In this document: positions 37,681-56,815 of the stretch, one piece after another
Layout: the number at the start of each line of letters is the position of its first letter
How positions within the stretch are numbered: position 1 is the first letter of the stretch
Source of the DNA: an uncultured Lutibacter sp.
GTDB lineage: Bacteria; Bacteroidota; Bacteroidia; Flavobacteriales; Flavobacteriaceae
Direction: 5' to 3'
Assembly (NCBI RefSeq): GCF_947493565.1
Contig: NZ_CANLRG010000002.1
Location: 186,001-250,000, forward strand
DNA length: 64,000 nucleotides
Translations under genes and position numbers: made by a program
The notes under the pieces: model-generated
The model's database searches: none
Seen by the model: only the letters and a program-made list of their open reading frames with translations
Told to the model about the DNA's origin: nothing

Positions 37681-38118
37681 TTAACAACATTTTGTAGGTA
37701 TTTTATCTACACGATTTTGATGTCTTCCACCTTCAAATTCAGTATTTAAAAAAATATCTACAAAACTTAAAGCTTGTTGTAATGAAACAAAGCGAGCAGG
37801 AATTGATAAAACATTTGCATTGTTATGTAAACGAGCTAATTCAACTAATTCATTATTCCAACAAAGTGCTGCACGAATTCCTTGATGTTTATTAGCAGTC
37901 ATTTGTGCGCCATTTCCACTTCCACAAATTATAATTCCAAAAGCTGCTTTATTGTTTTCAACAGCATCAGCTACAGGATGAATCGCATCTGGATAATCCA
38001 TACTATCTGAAGTATCAGTTCCAAAATTTAAAACTTTAATACCTTTACGTTCTAATTGTTTAATAATTTCAAATTTATACTCAGTACCGGCGTGATCATT
38101 ACCAATTGCAATTACCAT
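37681..38118 (-). CDS. rpiB: Ribose-5-phosphate isomerase B
   Basis: 145 residues. Interconverts ribose 5-phosphate and ribulose 5-phosphate in the pentose phosphate pathway. GNDHAGTEYKFEI at the N-terminus, catalytic Cys in IIICGSGNGAQMTANK and the phosphate-binding GGRHQNRVDKI are all present. A TATTTTTG -7 box lies at 38148-38155. It heads a run of up to six minus-strand genes. Immediately upstream begins the 9-mer array described separately. Confidence 0.95.
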   Translation of the reverse strand: MVIAIGNDHAGTEYKFEIIKQLERKGIKVLNFGTDTSDSMDYPDAIHPVADAVENNKAAFGIIICGSGNGAQMTANKHQGIRAALCWNNELVELARLHNNANVLSIPARFVSLQQALSFVDIFLNTEFEGGRHQNRVDKIPTKCC

Positions 38119-38147
38119 AGTTGTAGTTTTGTTAATAAGTTAGGCTA

Positions 38148-38155
38148 CAAAAATA
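38148..38155 (-). promoter_or_regulatory. -7 promoter box of rpiB
   Basis: TATTTTTG on the minus strand matches TAnnTTTG, 29 bases before the rpiB ATG. It sits between the first two copies of the 9-mer array. Confidence 0.5.
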
Positions 38156-38245
38156 CAAATTCACCGTTATTAACAGCAATAAAAACAAATGTTAATAGTA
38201 TTTTTTATATAGTTGATTAACAATTAGTTTACATAAATTTAAGAT

Positions 38246-38254
38246 TGTGAATAA
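38246..38254 (-). promoter_or_regulatory. Canonical DnaA box
   Basis: TTATTCACA on the minus strand fits the general DnaA box TTATNCACA. It lies inside the 9-mer array, which supports reading that array as DnaA-related. Confidence 0.4.
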
Positions 38255-38622
38255 GTTTAGAGTTAAAAAAGAAAACTATTTTTTGAATTATAAAAAGTTT
38301 TTATTAATACTAAAATTAGATTTTAACTCGCAAATTTTTTTATTGAATTTTTAAATCAAGTTTTAAACATATTTTAAAGCTGTTATTAACACTCAAATTA
38401 AAAAATATTATACAAAAAAATGGTGAATTAACACTATTAACAGCTTGTTAATAACTACTACATTTCTATTGATTTTAAACATTTTAAAATTTAAGTAAAT
38501 GTTAATAGAATTTTAAAAACGATATTTCAAAATATTAAAACAAAAAGTTATTGTAGCTATTAACAACCTATAATAACAAAAAATATTTTTTAAAATTTTA
38601 AAAACTTCTTTTTATAATAATT

Positions 38623-38808
38623 CTAATTGTTAATAAAGTTGAAAATTTTAACCTGAGCTGCCTTTTTTAAAATTGTAGGAGAAGAAGTAACGGTTTCAAT
38701 TGATTCATCTTCATTTGAAAAAAAAGTATTGATGCTCTTTATAGAAATATAAATTCCTATAAAAAAGATACAAATAAAAAAGATAATAATTTTAAATAAC
38801 CGTTTCAT
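38623..38808 (-). CDS. Small single-pass membrane protein, unknown
   Basis: 61 residues with one membrane helix (about 5-25, IIIFFICIFFIGIYISIKSI) and a polar tail. ATG start, no recognised family, no clear promoter. Its stop codon region overlaps the last copy of the 9-mer array. It could be a real small protein or a by-product of AT-rich sequence; the charge pattern MKRLFK before the helix favours a real one. Confidence 0.5.
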   Translation of the reverse strand: MKRLFKIIIFFICIFFIGIYISIKSINTFFSNEDESIETVTSSPTILKKAAQVKIFNFINN

Positions 38809-39913: not shown

Positions 39914-41773
39914 ATGTTTAGAAAAAATATAAAACTTCAATTTATATTAATAAATATAGTTCTTTTATTACTTGTAATTATTGCTTTATTTTCAATTAAA
40001 CATTTAAAAAATAATTATAATAAAGAAATTGAAAAAACATTAAATACAGCATCTAGTAGCGTTCAATCAGCTTATCATTTATGGTTAGAAAATTTAAAAG
40101 TAGATATTGAACTTGTTGCAAATGATCCAGTAGTAATTAATTTTACTGAAAAACTATTAACATACCCTCTAGATTCATCAATATTAATTAATAATAATAC
40201 ACAGACAGAATTAAGAAAATATTTAAATCCATTTTTAAAAATACATGACTATATAGGCTTTTTTATAATATCAACAGAAAACTATGTTAGTTATGGATCT
40301 ATGAGGAATTCTAATATTGGAACAAAAAATTTAATAAGTAAAGATTATCCAGATTTATTTGATAAAGCAAAAAAAGGAGAATTTTTTGTTGTACCTCCAA
40401 TTGCTTCAGATGTACCTTTAAACAATAAAAATAATTTTGAAAAGGAATTAACTATGTTTATTGGTTCACCTATTAAAAATAAAAAAGGCAAAATAATTGC
40501 TATATTAACTTTTAGAATTAACCCTTTAAAAGATTTTAGTAATATCGCTAAATTTGGAACTATTGGTAATAGTGGGGAAACTTATGTAATTGATAAAAAT
40601 GGTTTTATAGTAACTCAAAGTAGATTTTTAAAAAAGTTAAAACAAGATTCACTTCAAGTACATATCTCAAATTCTGAAACATTTAAAGTTACTAATCCTA
40701 GTAGTAATAAATTTAAAGAAAATAGTATTAAAATTAAAAATCAGTATTTACCATTAACGCTAGCTGCTAAAAATGTATTAAATAAAGAAACTAACATAAA
40801 TACCGAAGGTTATTTTAATTATTTAGGAACTGAAGTAATTGGATTTTGGACTTGGGATGAAATTCTTCAATTAGGTTTTATTACAGAAATTAATGTTTCA
40901 GAAGCGTTAAATCCATTTTATAAATCTAGAAATATTGTTTTATTTATGTTAATAGTAACAATAATTTTAGTATTATTATTATCATATTTAATCATAAAAC
41001 TAGCTAAAAAACACAGATTAAAATTAGTAAAAATTAATGAAAGTCTTGAAACTAAAGTACATGAAAGAACACTTGAACTGCAAGAAATTAATGCTACTAA
41101 AGATAAATTTTTTTCTATCATAGCTCATGATTTAGCAAACCCATTTAATTATTTAATTGGTATGACAGATTTCTTATCTGAAAATATAGAAACTGTAGAT
41201 GCTGAAACGAGAGATGAATTAATTTTAAAGCTTAATGATTCTGCAACAAGTGCGTTTGATTTATTATCTAACCTTTTAGTTTGGGCTAGAAGTCAACAAA
41301 AAATGATTAAAATTTCGCCTAAAAACTATAATTTAAAAGAATTAACTGATACTAGTATAAAACCACTTATAAATATAGCTAAAGAAAAAAATATTCAATT
41401 ACTAAATAAAATACAACTAAACAAAGATGTTTATATAGATCAATATATGGTTTCAACAGTTATTAGAAATTTAGTAAACAATGCCATAAAATTTACTAAC
41501 TATAATGGTATAATTGAAATTGAAGCTATTAAAAATGAAAATATAGTAACTATTTCTGTAAAAGATAATGGAGTAGGTATGAGTGAAGAAATACAATCAA
41601 AAATATTTAAAATTGGTGAAAAGGTTTCAACTCATGGTACAAATAATGAATCTGGTACTGGATTAGGTCTTATTTTATGTAACGAATTTATTTCTAAAAA
41701 CAATGGTAAAATTTGGGTTGAAAGTATAGTTGGAATAGGATCTACTTTTTATTTTACAGTACCATCTGCATAA
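39914..41773 (+). CDS. Membrane sensor histidine kinase with extracytoplasmic Cache-type domain
   Basis: 619 residues from the ATG at 39914. Membrane helix 1 (about 10-30), a periplasmic double-Cache-like sensor (about 35-325, with SFRINPLKDFSNIAKFG-like and GETYVIDKNGFIV stretches typical of dCache), membrane helix 2 (about 338-360), a coiled-coil linker, HisKA with phospho-acceptor His in SIIAHDLANPFNYL, and HATPase with NLVNNAIKFTNYNG and GTGLGLILCNEF. It senses a small molecule outside the membrane. No response regulator is adjacent, so it is an orphan kinase. Confidence 0.9.
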   Translation: MFRKNIKLQFILINIVLLLLVIIALFSIKHLKNNYNKEIEKTLNTASSSVQSAYHLWLENLKVDIELVANDPVVINFTEKLLTYPLDSSILINNNTQTELRKYLNPFLKIHDYIGFFIISTENYVSYGSMRNSNIGTKNLISKDYPDLFDKAKKGEFFVVPPIASDVPLNNKNNFEKELTMFIGSPIKNKKGKIIAILTFRINPLKDFSNIAKFGTIGNSGETYVIDKNGFIVTQSRFLKKLKQDSLQVHISNSETFKVTNPSSNKFKENSIKIKNQYLPLTLAAKNVLNKETNINTEGYFNYLGTEVIGFWTWDEILQLGFITEINVSEALNPFYKSRNIVLFMLIVTIILVLLLSYLIIKLAKKHRLKLVKINESLETKVHERTLELQEINATKDKFFSIIAHDLANPFNYLIGMTDFLSENIETVDAETRDELILKLNDSATSAFDLLSNLLVWARSQQKMIKISPKNYNLKELTDTSIKPLINIAKEKNIQLLNKIQLNKDVYIDQYMVSTVIRNLVNNAIKFTNYNGIIEIEAIKNENIVTISVKDNGVGMSEEIQSKIFKIGEKVSTHGTNNESGTGLGLILCNEFISKNNGKIWVESIVGIGSTFYFTVPSA

Positions 41774-41927: not shown

Positions 41928-44138
41928 ATGTCAAAAAGAAAAAAAATTTATAAAAAAAAAGGAAATATTATTAAAGATTTAACTAGAAAAATCTTACAAA
42001 TTTTAAATCAATCACCAGGTAATAGTTTTAATTATCGACAAATTTCTGCAAAATTAGATATTACAGATGCTAATGGTAGAAATCAAATTATTCAAAAATT
42101 AGAAGCATTAAAATCACAACAAAAGGTAGAAGAAATAGAGCGTGGAAAATTTAAAATAATTCCATTTGATAAATACTTCATTGGAACTATAGATGCTACT
42201 GCAAATGGAAATGCTTATTTTATTTGTGATGAATTAGAGCATGATATTTACATACCAGCTCGTAATTTAAATAAAGCCTTAGATAAAGACACGGTTAAAA
42301 TATATTTATACAATAGAAGAAATAGTAAAAAAGAAGAAGGCGATGTAGTAGAAATTATAAAACGCGCTAAAACAGAATTTGTTGGGGTACTTCAACTAAG
42401 TAAAAACTTTGGTTTTTTAGTTCCTGATGATTCTAAAATGTATGCAGATATTTTTATACCAAAAAATAAATTAAAAAATGCAGAACACGGTGTAAAAGTA
42501 TTGGTTAAAATGTTAGATTGGCCAAACAATTCTAAAAATCCTTTTGGTGAAGTAATTGAAGTTTTAGGAAAGCCTGGTGATCACGAAACAGAGATTCATT
42601 CCATACTGTTAGAATACGGTTTACCTTATAAATTTCCAGAAAAAGTAGAAGCAGAAGCTGCTAACATTTCTTTTGAAATAACAGATGATGAAATTTCTAA
42701 AAGAAGAGATATGCGTAAAGATTTAACCTTTACCATAGATCCAAAAGATGCCAAAGATTTTGATGATGCCTTATCTTTCAAAGTATTAGAAAATGGTAAT
42801 TATGAAATAGGAATCCATATAGCAGATGTTTCATATTATGTTCAAGAAAACACTATTTTAGAAAATGAAGCTTATGAAAGAGCTACTTCGGTATATTTAG
42901 TTGATAGGGTAGTACCTATGTTACCAGAAGTATTATCTAACGGTGTTTGCTCTTTACGCCCTCAAGAGGAAAAATTAACCTTTTCTGCAGTTTTTGAAAT
43001 CAATGAAAAAGCTCAAATTATACATGAATGGTTTGGAAGAACTGTAACCTATTCAGATATAAGATTTGCTTACGAAGAAGCACAAGAGATTATAGAAACT
43101 AAACAACCTATAATTTCAAAAGAAATTTCTATAACAGGTGAAGCATATACAGTAACACCTGAAATTGTAACAGCTATATTAACATTAGATACTTTAGCTA
43201 AAAAACTTCGTAAAAAGCGATTACAGCAAGGTGCAATAACTTTTGATAGAGTAGAGGTAAAATTTAATTTAAATGAAAATGCGGAGCCAATAGGTGTGTT
43301 TTTTAAAGAATCTAAAGATGCTAATAAACTAATTGAAGAGTTTATGTTGCTTGCTAATAAAAAAGTTGCAGAATTTATTGGAAATAACAAAGGTGTACCA
43401 AGTAAAAAAACATTTATTTATAGAGTTCATGACGAGCCTGATATTGAAAAATTAGCTTCGCTTCAAACCATTGTTAGTAAGTTTGGTTATACCAATAAAA
43501 TTGATACTAAAAATAAAAAAACGACTTCAGAATCTTTAAATAAATTGTTAAAAGATGTACATGGAACTGGTGAAGCAAATATGATTGAAACACTAGCGGT
43601 ACGATCTATGAGTAAAGCTGAATATACAACAGAAAATATTGGTCATTACGGATTGGCTTTTGATTATTACAGTCATTTTACATCACCAATTCGTCGTTAT
43701 CCAGATGTTATGACGCATAGATTATTACAGCATTACTTGGATGGTGGTAAATCTCCTAAAGCTGAAGCTTATGAAGAAAAGTGCAAACATTCATCCGATA
43801 TGGAGCAACTAGCTTCTAAAGCCGAACGAGATTCCATAAAATACATGCAAGTAAAATATATGGAAGATCATAAAGATCAACAATTTGAAGGGGTTATTTC
43901 GGGTGTTACCGAATGGGGAATTTATGTTGAAATCATTGAAAATAAATGTGAAGGAATGGTTCGTATTCGTGAAATTAAAGATGATTATTATTTATACGAC
44001 GAAAAACAATATGCTTTAGTGGGTCAATCAACAAATAATTTATATCAACTCGGAGATCGCGTTATCATAAAAGTAAAACATACAGATTTAGAACGTAAGC
44101 ATCTAGATTTTAATTTATTAGAAAAAATTGATAAATAA
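41928..44138 (+). CDS. rnr: Ribonuclease R
   Basis: 736 residues. Processive 3'-5' exoribonuclease that degrades structured RNA. A helix-turn-helix-like N-terminus (about 10-75), cold-shock domains, the RNB catalytic domain with DPKDAKDFDDALSF (metal-binding aspartates) and HYGLAFDYYSHFTSPIRRYPD, and a C-terminal S1 domain (FEGVISGVTEWGIYVEI) are in the expected order. The lysine-rich extreme N-terminus follows the family pattern. It has its own promoter and a following gene 61 bases away. Confidence 0.96.
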   Translation: MSKRKKIYKKKGNIIKDLTRKILQILNQSPGNSFNYRQISAKLDITDANGRNQIIQKLEALKSQQKVEEIERGKFKIIPFDKYFIGTIDATANGNAYFICDELEHDIYIPARNLNKALDKDTVKIYLYNRRNSKKEEGDVVEIIKRAKTEFVGVLQLSKNFGFLVPDDSKMYADIFIPKNKLKNAEHGVKVLVKMLDWPNNSKNPFGEVIEVLGKPGDHETEIHSILLEYGLPYKFPEKVEAEAANISFEITDDEISKRRDMRKDLTFTIDPKDAKDFDDALSFKVLENGNYEIGIHIADVSYYVQENTILENEAYERATSVYLVDRVVPMLPEVLSNGVCSLRPQEEKLTFSAVFEINEKAQIIHEWFGRTVTYSDIRFAYEEAQEIIETKQPIISKEISITGEAYTVTPEIVTAILTLDTLAKKLRKKRLQQGAITFDRVEVKFNLNENAEPIGVFFKESKDANKLIEEFMLLANKKVAEFIGNNKGVPSKKTFIYRVHDEPDIEKLASLQTIVSKFGYTNKIDTKNKKTTSESLNKLLKDVHGTGEANMIETLAVRSMSKAEYTTENIGHYGLAFDYYSHFTSPIRRYPDVMTHRLLQHYLDGGKSPKAEAYEEKCKHSSDMEQLASKAERDSIKYMQVKYMEDHKDQQFEGVISGVTEWGIYVEIIENKCEGMVRIREIKDDYYLYDEKQYALVGQSTNNLYQLGDRVIIKVKHTDLERKHLDFNLLEKIDK

Positions 44139-54891: not shown

Positions 54892-54907
54892 TGTTCCACG
54901 TGGAACA
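54892..54907. promoter_or_regulatory. parS site, ParB/Spo0J binding palindrome (left)
   Basis: TGTTCCACGTGGAACA is a perfect 16-base palindrome that fits the bacterial parS consensus tGTTNCACGTGNAACa. It lies between ybeY and mnmG. ParB loads here to organise and segregate the origin region. Confidence 0.9.
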
Positions 54908-54921
54908 AAATTTAGTTGATT

Positions 54922-56793
54922 ATGTTTAATACAGAATATGATGTTATAGTTGTTGGAGGAGGTCATGCTGGTGGTGAAGCAGCTGCTGCAGCTGCAAATA
55001 TGGGCGCTCATACATTGTTAATTACTATGAGTTTGCAAAATATTGCTCAAATGAGTTGTAACCCTGCTATGGGTGGAATTGCGAAAGGTCAGATTGTACG
55101 AGAGATTGATGCTTTAGGTGGTTATAGTGGTATTGTAACAGATAAAACAGCTATTCAGTTTAAAATGTTGAATAAATCTAAAGGGCCTGCAATGTGGAGT
55201 CCGAGAGCTCAAAGTGATCGAATGCGTTTTGCAGAATGTTGGCGAACTATGTTAGAGCAAACTGATAAATTGGACTTTTATCAAGATATGGTCAATGGTT
55301 TATTATTTGATCAAGATACAATTATTGGTGTTAGAACTTCTTTAGGAATTGAAATAAAAGCTAAAACTGTAATTATTACTGCTGGAACTTTTTTAAATGG
55401 CTTGATTCATATAGGAGATAAAACTTTTGGTGGTGGTAGAGCAGGAGAACGTGCTTCTACTGGAATAACAGAAGATTTGGTAAAAAAAGGATTTGAAGCA
55501 GGTAGAATGAAAACAGGAACTCCTCCTAGAGTGGATGGTAGATCTTTAGATTTCTCTAAAATGATTGAACAACCTGGTGATGAAAATCCTGAAAAATTCA
55601 GTTATTTGCCTTCAACTAAACCTTTGATCAAACAACGTTCTTGTTATATGAGTTATACTTCCAAGGAAGTTCATGAGTTGTTAAGAACAGGTTTTGATAG
55701 ATCGCCTATGTTTAATGGTAGAATTAAAAGTATAGGACCTAGATATTGCCCTTCTATAGAAGATAAAATTGATCGTTTTGCTGCCAAAGAACGACACCAA
55801 ATTTTTGTGGAACCAGAAGGTTGGGACACGGTGGAAATTTATGTAAATGGATTTTCTACTTCTTTACCCGAAGATGTTCAGGATAAAGCATTAAGAAAAG
55901 TACCTGGATTTGAGCAGGTAAAATTCTTTAGATATGGTTATGCTATTGAATACGATTTTTTTCCTCCAACACAATTAAAGCACACTTTAGAAACTAAACG
56001 TATAAAAAATTTATATTTTGCTGGGCAAATTAATGGAACCACTGGTTACGAAGAGGCTGCTGCACAAGGGTTGATGGCAGGTGTAAATGCTGTTTTAAAT
56101 ATTAAAGGTAAAAAGCCTTTTATTTTGAAGAGAAATGAAGCTTATATTGGAGTTTTAATAGATGACTTAATTACTAAGGGAACAGAAGAACCATACAGGA
56201 TGTTTACTTCTCGTGCAGAGTATAGGACTTTGTTACGTCAAGATAATGCTGATTTGCGTTTAACTCCTTTGGCTTTTGAGTTAGGATTGGCATCAAAAGA
56301 GCGTTTAAATAGAGTTATAGAAAAACAGGAAAAAACAGATTTATTTGTGAAGTTTTTAACAGAAACGAGTGTTAAACCTGAAGAAATAAATCCAATTTTA
56401 GAGGCTAAAAATACGGCGCCAATTTTGCAATCTATGAAGTTGTTTAAGATAGCTGCAAGACCCCAATTAGATTTTTCTGATATTAGAAAACTTGAAAGTG
56501 TTGAATCTTTTATAGAAATTAATGAGATAGATTTTGAGATTATTGAACAAACAGAAATCCATGTAAAATATGCAGGTTATATAGAGAAAGAAAAGAATCA
56601 AGCTGACAAGTTAACTAGATTAGAGAATGTTTCTATTCCTGCTAATTTTGATTATTCTAAGGTTAAATCTTTATCTATTGAAGCTCGTCAAAAGCTAACA
56701 AAAATTCAACCCATAACCATTTCTCAAGCGAGTAGAATTAGTGGAGTTTCTCCGAGCGATATTTCTGTGTTATTAGTTTATATGGGACGTTAA
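54922..56793 (+). CDS. mnmG: tRNA uridine-5-carboxymethylaminomethyl(34) synthesis enzyme
   Basis: 623 residues from the ATG at 54922 (a TTG two codons earlier is less likely). Works with MnmE to modify the wobble uridine of several tRNAs, using FAD and NADH. FAD motif VIVVGGGHAGGEAAAAAANMG, then SCNPAMGGIAKGQ, the second signature GPRYCPSIEDKIDRF and GTTGYEEAAAQGLMAG are intact. Historically gidA, often near oriC. Here it is flanked on both sides by identical parS palindromes. Confidence 0.98.
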   Translation: MFNTEYDVIVVGGGHAGGEAAAAAANMGAHTLLITMSLQNIAQMSCNPAMGGIAKGQIVREIDALGGYSGIVTDKTAIQFKMLNKSKGPAMWSPRAQSDRMRFAECWRTMLEQTDKLDFYQDMVNGLLFDQDTIIGVRTSLGIEIKAKTVIITAGTFLNGLIHIGDKTFGGGRAGERASTGITEDLVKKGFEAGRMKTGTPPRVDGRSLDFSKMIEQPGDENPEKFSYLPSTKPLIKQRSCYMSYTSKEVHELLRTGFDRSPMFNGRIKSIGPRYCPSIEDKIDRFAAKERHQIFVEPEGWDTVEIYVNGFSTSLPEDVQDKALRKVPGFEQVKFFRYGYAIEYDFFPPTQLKHTLETKRIKNLYFAGQINGTTGYEEAAAQGLMAGVNAVLNIKGKKPFILKRNEAYIGVLIDDLITKGTEEPYRMFTSRAEYRTLLRQDNADLRLTPLAFELGLASKERLNRVIEKQEKTDLFVKFLTETSVKPEEINPILEAKNTAPILQSMKLFKIAARPQLDFSDIRKLESVESFIEINEIDFEIIEQTEIHVKYAGYIEKEKNQADKLTRLENVSIPANFDYSKVKSLSIEARQKLTKIQPITISQASRISGVSPSDISVLLVYMGR

Positions 56794-56799
56794 TTGTTG

Positions 56800-56815
56800 T
56801 GTTCCACGTGGAACA
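56800..56815. promoter_or_regulatory. parS site, ParB/Spo0J binding palindrome (right)
   Basis: A second exact copy of TGTTCCACGTGGAACA, 6 bases after the mnmG stop. Two copies 1.9 kb apart greatly reduce the chance that either is accidental. Confidence 0.9.

What the first reader, a model, noticed from the sequence alone, without database searches (positions are those of the whole stretch)
38130..38636. Nine-copy TTATTAACA/CTATTAACA array plus a DnaA box in an AT-rich gene-free stretch: candidate oriC
Seen directly: five exact TTATTAACA and four CTATTAACA copies on both strands in about 500 bases, one TTATTCACA, and an almost pure A/T stretch at 38255-38380. Assuming about 70 percent AT, one exact 9-mer would be expected here far less than once. 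Known: origins carry clusters of DnaA boxes near an easily melted region. Inference: the 9-mer is either a lineage form of the DnaA box or the site of another origin or nucleoid protein. If confirmed it would define a divergent DnaA box for this group.
Basis: partly seen in the sequence, partly recalled or inferred. Interest (0 to 1): 0.85.

Follow-up and report, generated by a model that had tools for sequence, protein, structure and literature searches.

The report
Flavobacterial replication origin, divergent DnaA boxes
This is very probably the place where a marine flavobacterium starts copying its chromosome; it is marked by a cluster of slightly unusual docking sites for the initiator protein, lies far from the initiator gene where software tends to look, and is kept at the same spot in many related genera.

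Summary
The locus is very probably oriC of a Lutibacter-like Flavobacteriaceae. The GC-skew minimum of the 400 kb read from its contig lies 1.6 kb past the array, the only such cluster there. In three closed congeners the skew flips at rpiB, not at dnaA. Exact parS sites sit 16-18 kb away; in the 12 of 19 closed relatives that have exact copies, all 17 lie within 55 kb of rpiB-rnr. In 34 family loci TTATNAACA is 12-fold and TTATNCACA 9-fold enriched; T or G at position 6 is not. Across 29 aligned origins of the genus, position 5 varies most, as in DnaA boxes. DnaA has Ala at E. coli T435 in 43 of 43 genomes. Corrections: the likelier melting site is 38566-38627. Upstream of dnaA, C6 boxes are enriched but A6 boxes are not, so A6 boxes are probably weak, cooperative sites around one C6 anchor. 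A second protein on them is not excluded. No binding or replication data exist here.

The parts
38130..38138 (-). box 1, TTATTAACA (exact in 12 of 29 aligned genus origins, own included)
38167..38175 (+). box 2, TTATTAACA (exact in 21 of 29)
38190..38198 (-). box 3, CTATTAACA (exact in 24 of 29)
38246..38254 (-). box 4, TTATTCACA: the one canonical (C6) DnaA box; TTATNCACA in 25 of 29, TTATTGACA in 3, TTGTTCACA in 1
38383..38391 (+). box 5, TTATTAACA; TTATNAACA in 26 of 29, position 5 free (A 13, G 8, T 5)
38434..38442 (+). box 6, CTATTAACA; poorly conserved (exact in 5 of 29)
38446..38454 (-). box 7, TTATTAACA; TTATNAACA in 29 of 29, position 5 free (A 17, T 6, C 4, G 2)
38500..38508 (-). box 8, CTATTAACA; last four letters AACA kept in 29 of 29, first half degenerate
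38557..38565 (+). box 9, CTATTAACA; ATATTAACA in 15 of 29; its 3' end points into the AT-rich stretch
38566..38627 (.). probable duplex-unwinding element: 90.3% AT, least stable 60-mer of the intergenic region, between two boxes whose 3' ends point inward
   Evidence: least stable site here in 20 of 29 genus origins, own included
38628..38636 (-). box 10, TTATTAACA; TTATNAACA in 29 of 29 (C 14, T 13, G 2 at position 5)
38119..38622 (.). intergenic core of the proposed oriC
37681..38118 (-). rpiB, ribose-5-phosphate isomerase B: flanking gene
41928..44138 (+). rnr, ribonuclease R: divergent gene on the other side, 3.3 kb from the array here, its near neighbour in many family members
40275..40275 (.). 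cumulative GC-skew minimum of the contig (C2:226275)
54892..54907 (.). exact parS, TGTTCCACGTGGAACA
   Evidence: C2:240892
56800..56815 (.). second exact parS; the two flank mnmG (54937-56784)

Best explanation
The locus is the chromosomal replication origin (oriC) of a Lutibacter-like member of the Flavobacteriaceae. DnaA, encoded on another contig, anchors at the single C6 box (38246-38254). It then spreads cooperatively over nine weaker A6 boxes (TTATNAACA / YTATTAACA) on both strands. It melts the 62 bp AT-rich stretch at 38566-38627, framed by two boxes whose 3' ends point inward, and the helicase is loaded there for two diverging forks. Shown: the array, its conservation, its base preferences, the skew minimum, the parS neighbourhood, the distance from dnaA. 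Inferred: DnaA as the binder of the A6 sites, the strong/weak division, the melting site, bidirectional initiation.
For: Skew: V-shaped cumulative GC skew over 400 kb with its minimum at C2:226275, 1.6 kb from the last box. In closed congeners G011, G018 and G036 the skew turns from negative to positive at rpiB, while dnaA near base 1 lies in a stretch of positive skew, 1.04-1.33 Mb away. parS: the only two exact sites in the own genome are 16-18 kb away; in the 12 of 19 closed relatives with an exact match, 17 of 17 sites lie 5-55 kb from the start of rnr, or from rpiB in G011. Motif: 34 family regions hold 87 TTATNAACA (shuffled mean 7.5, max 14) and 18 TTATNCACA (1.9, max 6), but 3 TTATNTACA (6.2) and 1 TTATNGACA (1.4); the top five 9-mers found without a prior are this motif or shifts of it. 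Footprint: box columns 0.895 conserved against 0.791 overall, position 5 lowest at 0.73. Locus: rpiB and rnr divergent in 34 of 40 family loci read; the densest TTATNMACA window of the stretch, ties included, starts in that gap in 29 of 34. Melting site.
Against: A6 boxes are not enriched upstream of dnaA (2 observed, 2.4 expected, 36 genomes) while C6 boxes are (6 against 1.0, max 4), so DnaA's preferred isolated box still looks like TTATTCACA. In G036 and G018 the minimum of the 60 kb read around rpiB is about 18 kb from the array. 2 of 34 family regions (L127, L190) have no TTATNMACA beside rpiB, and 9 of 77 named loci have no TTATNAACA there. The congener G011 has one YTATTAACA at most in any 520 bp of its rpiB stretch. 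Four 60-mers elsewhere in the window are less stable than the proposed melting site, and in 9 of 29 genus origins the least stable 60-mer lies elsewhere. Ala at position 435 also occurs in some Epsilon/Delta proteobacteria, while mapped epsilonproteobacterial boxes keep TTCAC (PMC5043019, passages), so Ala435 alone does not explain A6. No binding or replication data.
Confidence: 0.86

Rival explanations
1. The locus is oriC, but the A6 nine-mers are bound by a different, origin-specific protein (a nucleoid or sequestration factor). DnaA uses only the one C6 box.
For: A6 boxes cluster at the origin and are not enriched upstream of dnaA, where C6 boxes are. At the well-kept sites 4, 5, 7 and 10 no sequence exchanges C6 for A6, as two different binders would also give.
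Against: The A6 sites share the whole DnaA-box frame TTAT-N-M-ACA with a free position 5. C6 and A6 are enriched in the same regions while T6 and G6 are not. No candidate protein was looked for.
Confidence: 0.12
2. The array is an operator that regulates the adjacent gene rpiB (or rnr), not an origin.
For: It lies directly upstream of rpiB in most loci read.
Against: It follows neither gene. Where rpiB and rnr are 1.9-8.9 kb apart, the cluster is 0.1-1.0 kb from the start of rnr and away from rpiB in L258, L265, L268, L278 and L283, but beside rpiB in others (for example L248, L271, L276) and in the window, where rnr is 3.3 kb off. L272, L284 and L292 show no cluster at either gene (at most 2 per 520 bp). 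Skew and parS are unexplained by this reading.
Confidence: 0.02
3. The origin lies next to mnmG, as predicted by Ori-Finder for Mariniflexile litorale (text) and shown for Algorimicrobium (map legend).
For: Those predictions (PMC11278836 passages; PMC12843772 passages). mnmG is 11-54 kb from rpiB or rnr in 11 of 11 genomes tested.
Against: No TTATNMACA cluster lies near mnmG on C2; mnmG is flanked by parS in the own genome; the skew minimum is 14.7 kb from mnmG and 1.6 kb from the array. The Mariniflexile text and its figure legend contradict each other on which end mnmG marks.
Confidence: 0.05
4. Chance cluster in AT-rich DNA.
For: The intergenic region is 83% AT.
Against: Dinucleotide-preserving shuffles and conservation across 29 genus origins and 34 family loci.
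Confidence: 0.003

Closest known systems
Escherichia coli oriC (R boxes, weak I and tau sites, DUE)
   Same: Consensus TTATnCACA boxes at the ends with weaker sites between them, beside an AT-rich element (passages of PMC5742627; weak I and tau sites: passages of PMC5043019).
   Different: Here the putative weak sites are regular TTATNAACA nine-mers, the origin lies between rpiB and rnr, and dnaA is far away.
Mycoplasma hominis / M. arthritidis / M. mobile dnaA-region boxes
   Same: The same nine-mer, TTATTAACA, was called a putative DnaA box (passages of PMC2751442).
   Different: One or two boxes upstream of dnaA in a different phylum; here nine YTATTAACA plus a C6 box, remote from dnaA, with wide conservation in the family.
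Epsilonproteobacterial origins with altered DnaA specificity
   Same: A lineage-specific box preference tentatively tied to helix 5 residues including position 435 (passages of PMC5043019).
   Different: There position 5 is fixed as T and position 6 stays C (TTCAC core); here position 5 is free and position 6 is mostly A.

Membership tests
bacterial DnaA-dependent oriC | dense cluster of DnaA-type boxes, locally unique | tested here: met
   10 boxes in 507 bp; next best 520 bp window on 400 kb of C2 holds 2. Only 100 of 245 YTATTAACA places of the genome were listed, so uniqueness genome-wide is not fully tested.
bacterial DnaA-dependent oriC | lies at the GC-skew minimum | tested here: met
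   1.6 kb from it on C2; 1-19 kb from the minimum of the 60 kb read around rpiB in three closed congeners, which were otherwise only sampled. Other contigs of the own genome were not read.
bacterial DnaA-dependent oriC | AT-rich, easily melted stretch beside the boxes | tested here: met
   38569-38628 is the 5th least stable of the non-overlapping 60-mers of the window and the least stable of the intergenic region. Melting itself was not tested.
bacterial DnaA-dependent oriC | near parS in genomes with ParABS | tested here: met
   7 of 19 closed genomes, two of the three closed congeners among them, had no exact match and say nothing. The presence of parA/parB was not checked.
bacterial DnaA-dependent oriC | bound by DnaA and replication starts there | not testable with these tools
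   needs experiment
canonical DnaA box (TTATNCACA) | C at position 6 | tested here: not met
   1 of 10 boxes in the window; in 34 family regions 18 C6 against 87 A6; in 77 of 80 named loci 41 C6 against 247 A6 (no shuffled control)
DnaA box, broad sense (TTAT-N-M-ACA) | free position 5, selected position 6, conserved flanks | tested here: met
basal unwinding system (DnaA box, spacer, 3'-GAT-5' trios) | DnaA-trios about 10-13 bp from a box | not tested
   looked for by eye only, no clear GAT repeat seen; definition from passages of PMC8287927
origin next to dnaA | adjacent to dnaA | tested here: not met
   dnaA is on contig C5 and rpiB is 1.04-1.33 Mb from it in closed congeners

The most novel reading that the evidence does not exclude
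Flavobacteriaceae run a two-tier DnaA code: a recognition helix with Ala in place of the usual Thr435 reads one C6 anchor box strongly and many A6 boxes weakly. The order of C6 and A6 sites, held at fixed positions across a genus, sets when and where the rpiB-rnr origin opens, at a melting site framed by inward-pointing A6 boxes.
Probability: 0.35. Interest if true: 0.7.

Novelty: new variant of a known kind. Interest (0 to 1): 0.55.

Why it matters
Of the 19 closed Flavobacteriaceae genomes examined, 7 carry the DnaA domain within their first 1.5 kb, so are numbered from dnaA, and published predictions fall on mnmG: one paper notes that dnaA does not fit the skew (PMC11278836, passages). A TTATCCACA search with one mismatch finds no 520 bp window with more than 2 hits on 400 kb of the contig. 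The locus rpiB-[oriC]-rnr, with the motif TTATNMACA, gives a concrete, testable origin for a large, mostly marine group. It also links a fixed change in DnaA's recognition helix to a change in box preference, as a hypothesis.

Tried and rejected
Operator of rpiB or rnr: rejected, the cluster follows neither gene when they are apart. DnaA autoregulation through A6 boxes: not seen. Conservation beyond the family: in 20 loci from other families of the order (some cut by contig ends) 0 of 20 showed a divergent rnr upstream of rpiB in the stretch read; L200 and L205 had four boxes, the others fewer. A phylum-wide check of residue 435 could not be completed (one search gave positions but no letters). 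A residue-to-base map for T435 was sought, but the structure paper is not held; that residues 432-435 and 438-439 make base contacts is from passages of PMC5043019. That the E. coli DUE lies on the 3' side of the TTATCCACA box R1 is recalled, from no call; so are the species behind the PDB codes. Literature: the listings shown (those of 46, 47 and 65 capped at 20 of 53, 20 of 33 and 15 of 71 papers) showed no paper on TTATTAACA as a flavobacterial DnaA box or on rpiB-rnr as an origin; of the 13 papers only PMC2751442 was opened. DoriC's records are not in the library, so an entry there may exist.

Full report
What is there. The window is C2:186001-250000 of a 3.10 Mb, 37-contig genome. The nearest named relatives by RpiB are Lutibacter litoralis and L. 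flavus (best 80 of at least 580 kept). Between rpiB (37681-38118, -) and a 61-aa ORF (38623-38808, -) lies a 504 bp, 83.3% AT intergenic region. It holds nine YTATTAACA, the last overlapping the ORF's end, and one TTATTCACA, on both strands. On the far side of the 61-aa ORF come a lipid-kinase gene, a histidine-kinase gene and rnr.

Is it the origin? Four lines agree. (1) Skew: over 400 kb of the 409 kb contig the cumulative G-C count falls to -5765 at C2:226275 and rises again to -3164; the minimum is window 40275, 1.6 kb past the last box. In three closed congeners, sampled at 20 stretches of 20 kb each, the stretch with rpiB sits at the change from negative to positive skew. The samples are noisy further out, and in two of the three the minimum of the 60 kb read around rpiB is about 18 kb from the array. 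(2) dnaA is elsewhere: on contig C5 here, and at the first kilobase of the three closed congeners, 1.04-1.33 Mb from rpiB the short way round. (3) parS: the only two exact TGTTCCACGTGGAACA in the genome flank mnmG at C2:240892 and 242800; a one-mismatch site lies at C2:93296. Of 19 closed genomes of the family, 12 have exact copies, and all 17 of these lie 5-55 kb from the start of rnr (from rpiB in G011); the other 7 genomes have no exact copy. (4) Uniqueness: no other cluster on C2, and at most 2 YTATTAACA per 520 bp in 57 of 57 sampled stretches away from rpiB; the same yardstick, however, misses the rpiB stretch of G011, whose boxes are mostly other variants.

Is the nine-mer a DnaA box? 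I read 40 family loci around rnr, chosen from the 117 genomes with a match among 120 (fetched); 34 had a visible rpiB. In the up to 700 bp upstream of rpiB in these 34, 22,664 bp, position 6 of TTATNxACA is A 87 times, C 18, T 3, G 1, against shuffled means of 7.5, 1.9, 6.2 and 1.4. AT-richness alone would favour T as much as A, so A or C is selected. In 77 of 80 named loci (3 had under 450 bp upstream) the counts are A 247, C 41, G or T together 18, without a shuffled control; 9 of the 77 have no A6 box there. In 29 aligned genus origins (own plus 28; one short locus dropped) box columns are better conserved than the region (0.895 against 0.791) and position 5 is the most variable (0.73). Boxes 7 and 10 (29 of 29) and 5 (26 of 29) change at position 5 while keeping TTAT and AACA; box 4 keeps C6 in 26 of 29, the other 3 having G. 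Boxes 1 and 6 are poorly kept. This is the grammar of TTATnCACA (PMC5742627, passages) with A allowed at position 6.

The recognition helix. DnaA reads GKRDHATVLHA or a near variant in 43 of 43 loci examined, own included: Ala where E. coli has Thr435. The five alignments shown (1j1v, 8btg, 2hcb, 1l8q, 3pvp; by recall E. coli, B. subtilis, Aquifex twice and M. tuberculosis) all have Thr. Residues 432-435 and 438-439 make base contacts, and variation at 435 has been proposed to shift box preference (PMC5043019, passages). In that paper Ala also occurs in some Epsilon/Delta proteobacteria, while mapped epsilonproteobacterial boxes keep C6, so Ala435 is a lead and not a proof.

A result against a simple reading. 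In 306-357 bp upstream of dnaA in 36 of 43 loci (7 had too little upstream sequence or no clear start), A6 boxes are not enriched (2 against 2.4 expected), while C6 boxes are (6 against 1.0), five of them TTATTCACA at about -85 to -105. Isolated strong boxes therefore still seem to be C6. I infer that the A6 boxes are weak and act together at the origin, around the one C6 anchor; a second protein on the A6 sites remains possible.

Where it opens. The least stable 60-mer of the intergenic region is 38569-38628, the fifth least stable of the window; the four weaker ones lie outside the array. In 20 of 29 genus origins it falls at the same place. It is framed by boxes 9 (+) and 10 (-), whose 3' ends point inward; that this is the side on which E. 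coli R1 faces its melting element is recalled.

How far it reaches. rpiB and rnr are divergent in 34 of 40 family loci; of the other six, one (G084) is a record that begins 546 bp before rnr, and five show no rpiB in the stretch. rnr lies divergent upstream of rpiB in 73 of 77 named loci. The densest TTATNMACA window of the stretch, ties included, starts in the rpiB-rnr gap in 29 of 34; L142 counts only by a tie at one box, L130 and L192 miss by under 100 bp, and L127, L137 and L190 miss clearly. Where rpiB lies far from rnr the cluster is near rnr in L258, L265, L268, L278 and L283 (0.1-1.0 kb), while L272, L284 and L292 show none at either gene, and L249 and L267 none in the stretch. Outside the family, 0 of 20 loci show the pairing.

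Known or new. TTATTAACA has been named as a putative DnaA box in mycoplasmas (PMC2751442, passages). For flavobacteria, one paper seen in passages reports that dnaA does not fit the skew and takes an Ori-Finder call at mnmG (PMC11278836), and another labels oriC at mnmG (PMC12843772). This is an origin of the known DnaA kind with a lineage-specific box class, so a new variant of a known kind.

Noticed in passing
window 38623-38808 (-): A 61-aa ORF with a hydrophobic N-terminus next to the origin; found by tblastn in 16 of 29 congeners, 4 of 40 family loci and 7 of 80 named loci, no Pfam match. Its end overlaps box 10.
   Followed up: partly
window 54892-56815: Two exact parS sites immediately flank mnmG, which may explain why mnmG is used as an origin indicator in this family.
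   Followed up: partly
L061, L152, L158, L165, L166 (upstream of dnaA): A single TTATTCACA about 85-105 bp upstream of dnaA in 5 of 36 genomes, perhaps dnaA autoregulation through a C6 box.
   Followed up: no
window 38265-38286 and aligned congeners: A conserved AAAAAAGAAAAC / TTTTTTG element next to the C6 box; AAAAGAAAA is also enriched in the family (26 in 22 of 34 regions against 4.7 expected).
   Followed up: no
L200 (G038, another family of the order): Four A6 boxes beside rpiB and a strong local skew flip (-0.247 to +0.192), so the origin site may be older than the family.
   Followed up: no
L179 (G084), start of the record: This closed record is numbered from 546 bp before rnr, that is from inside or beside the proposed origin.
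   Followed up: no
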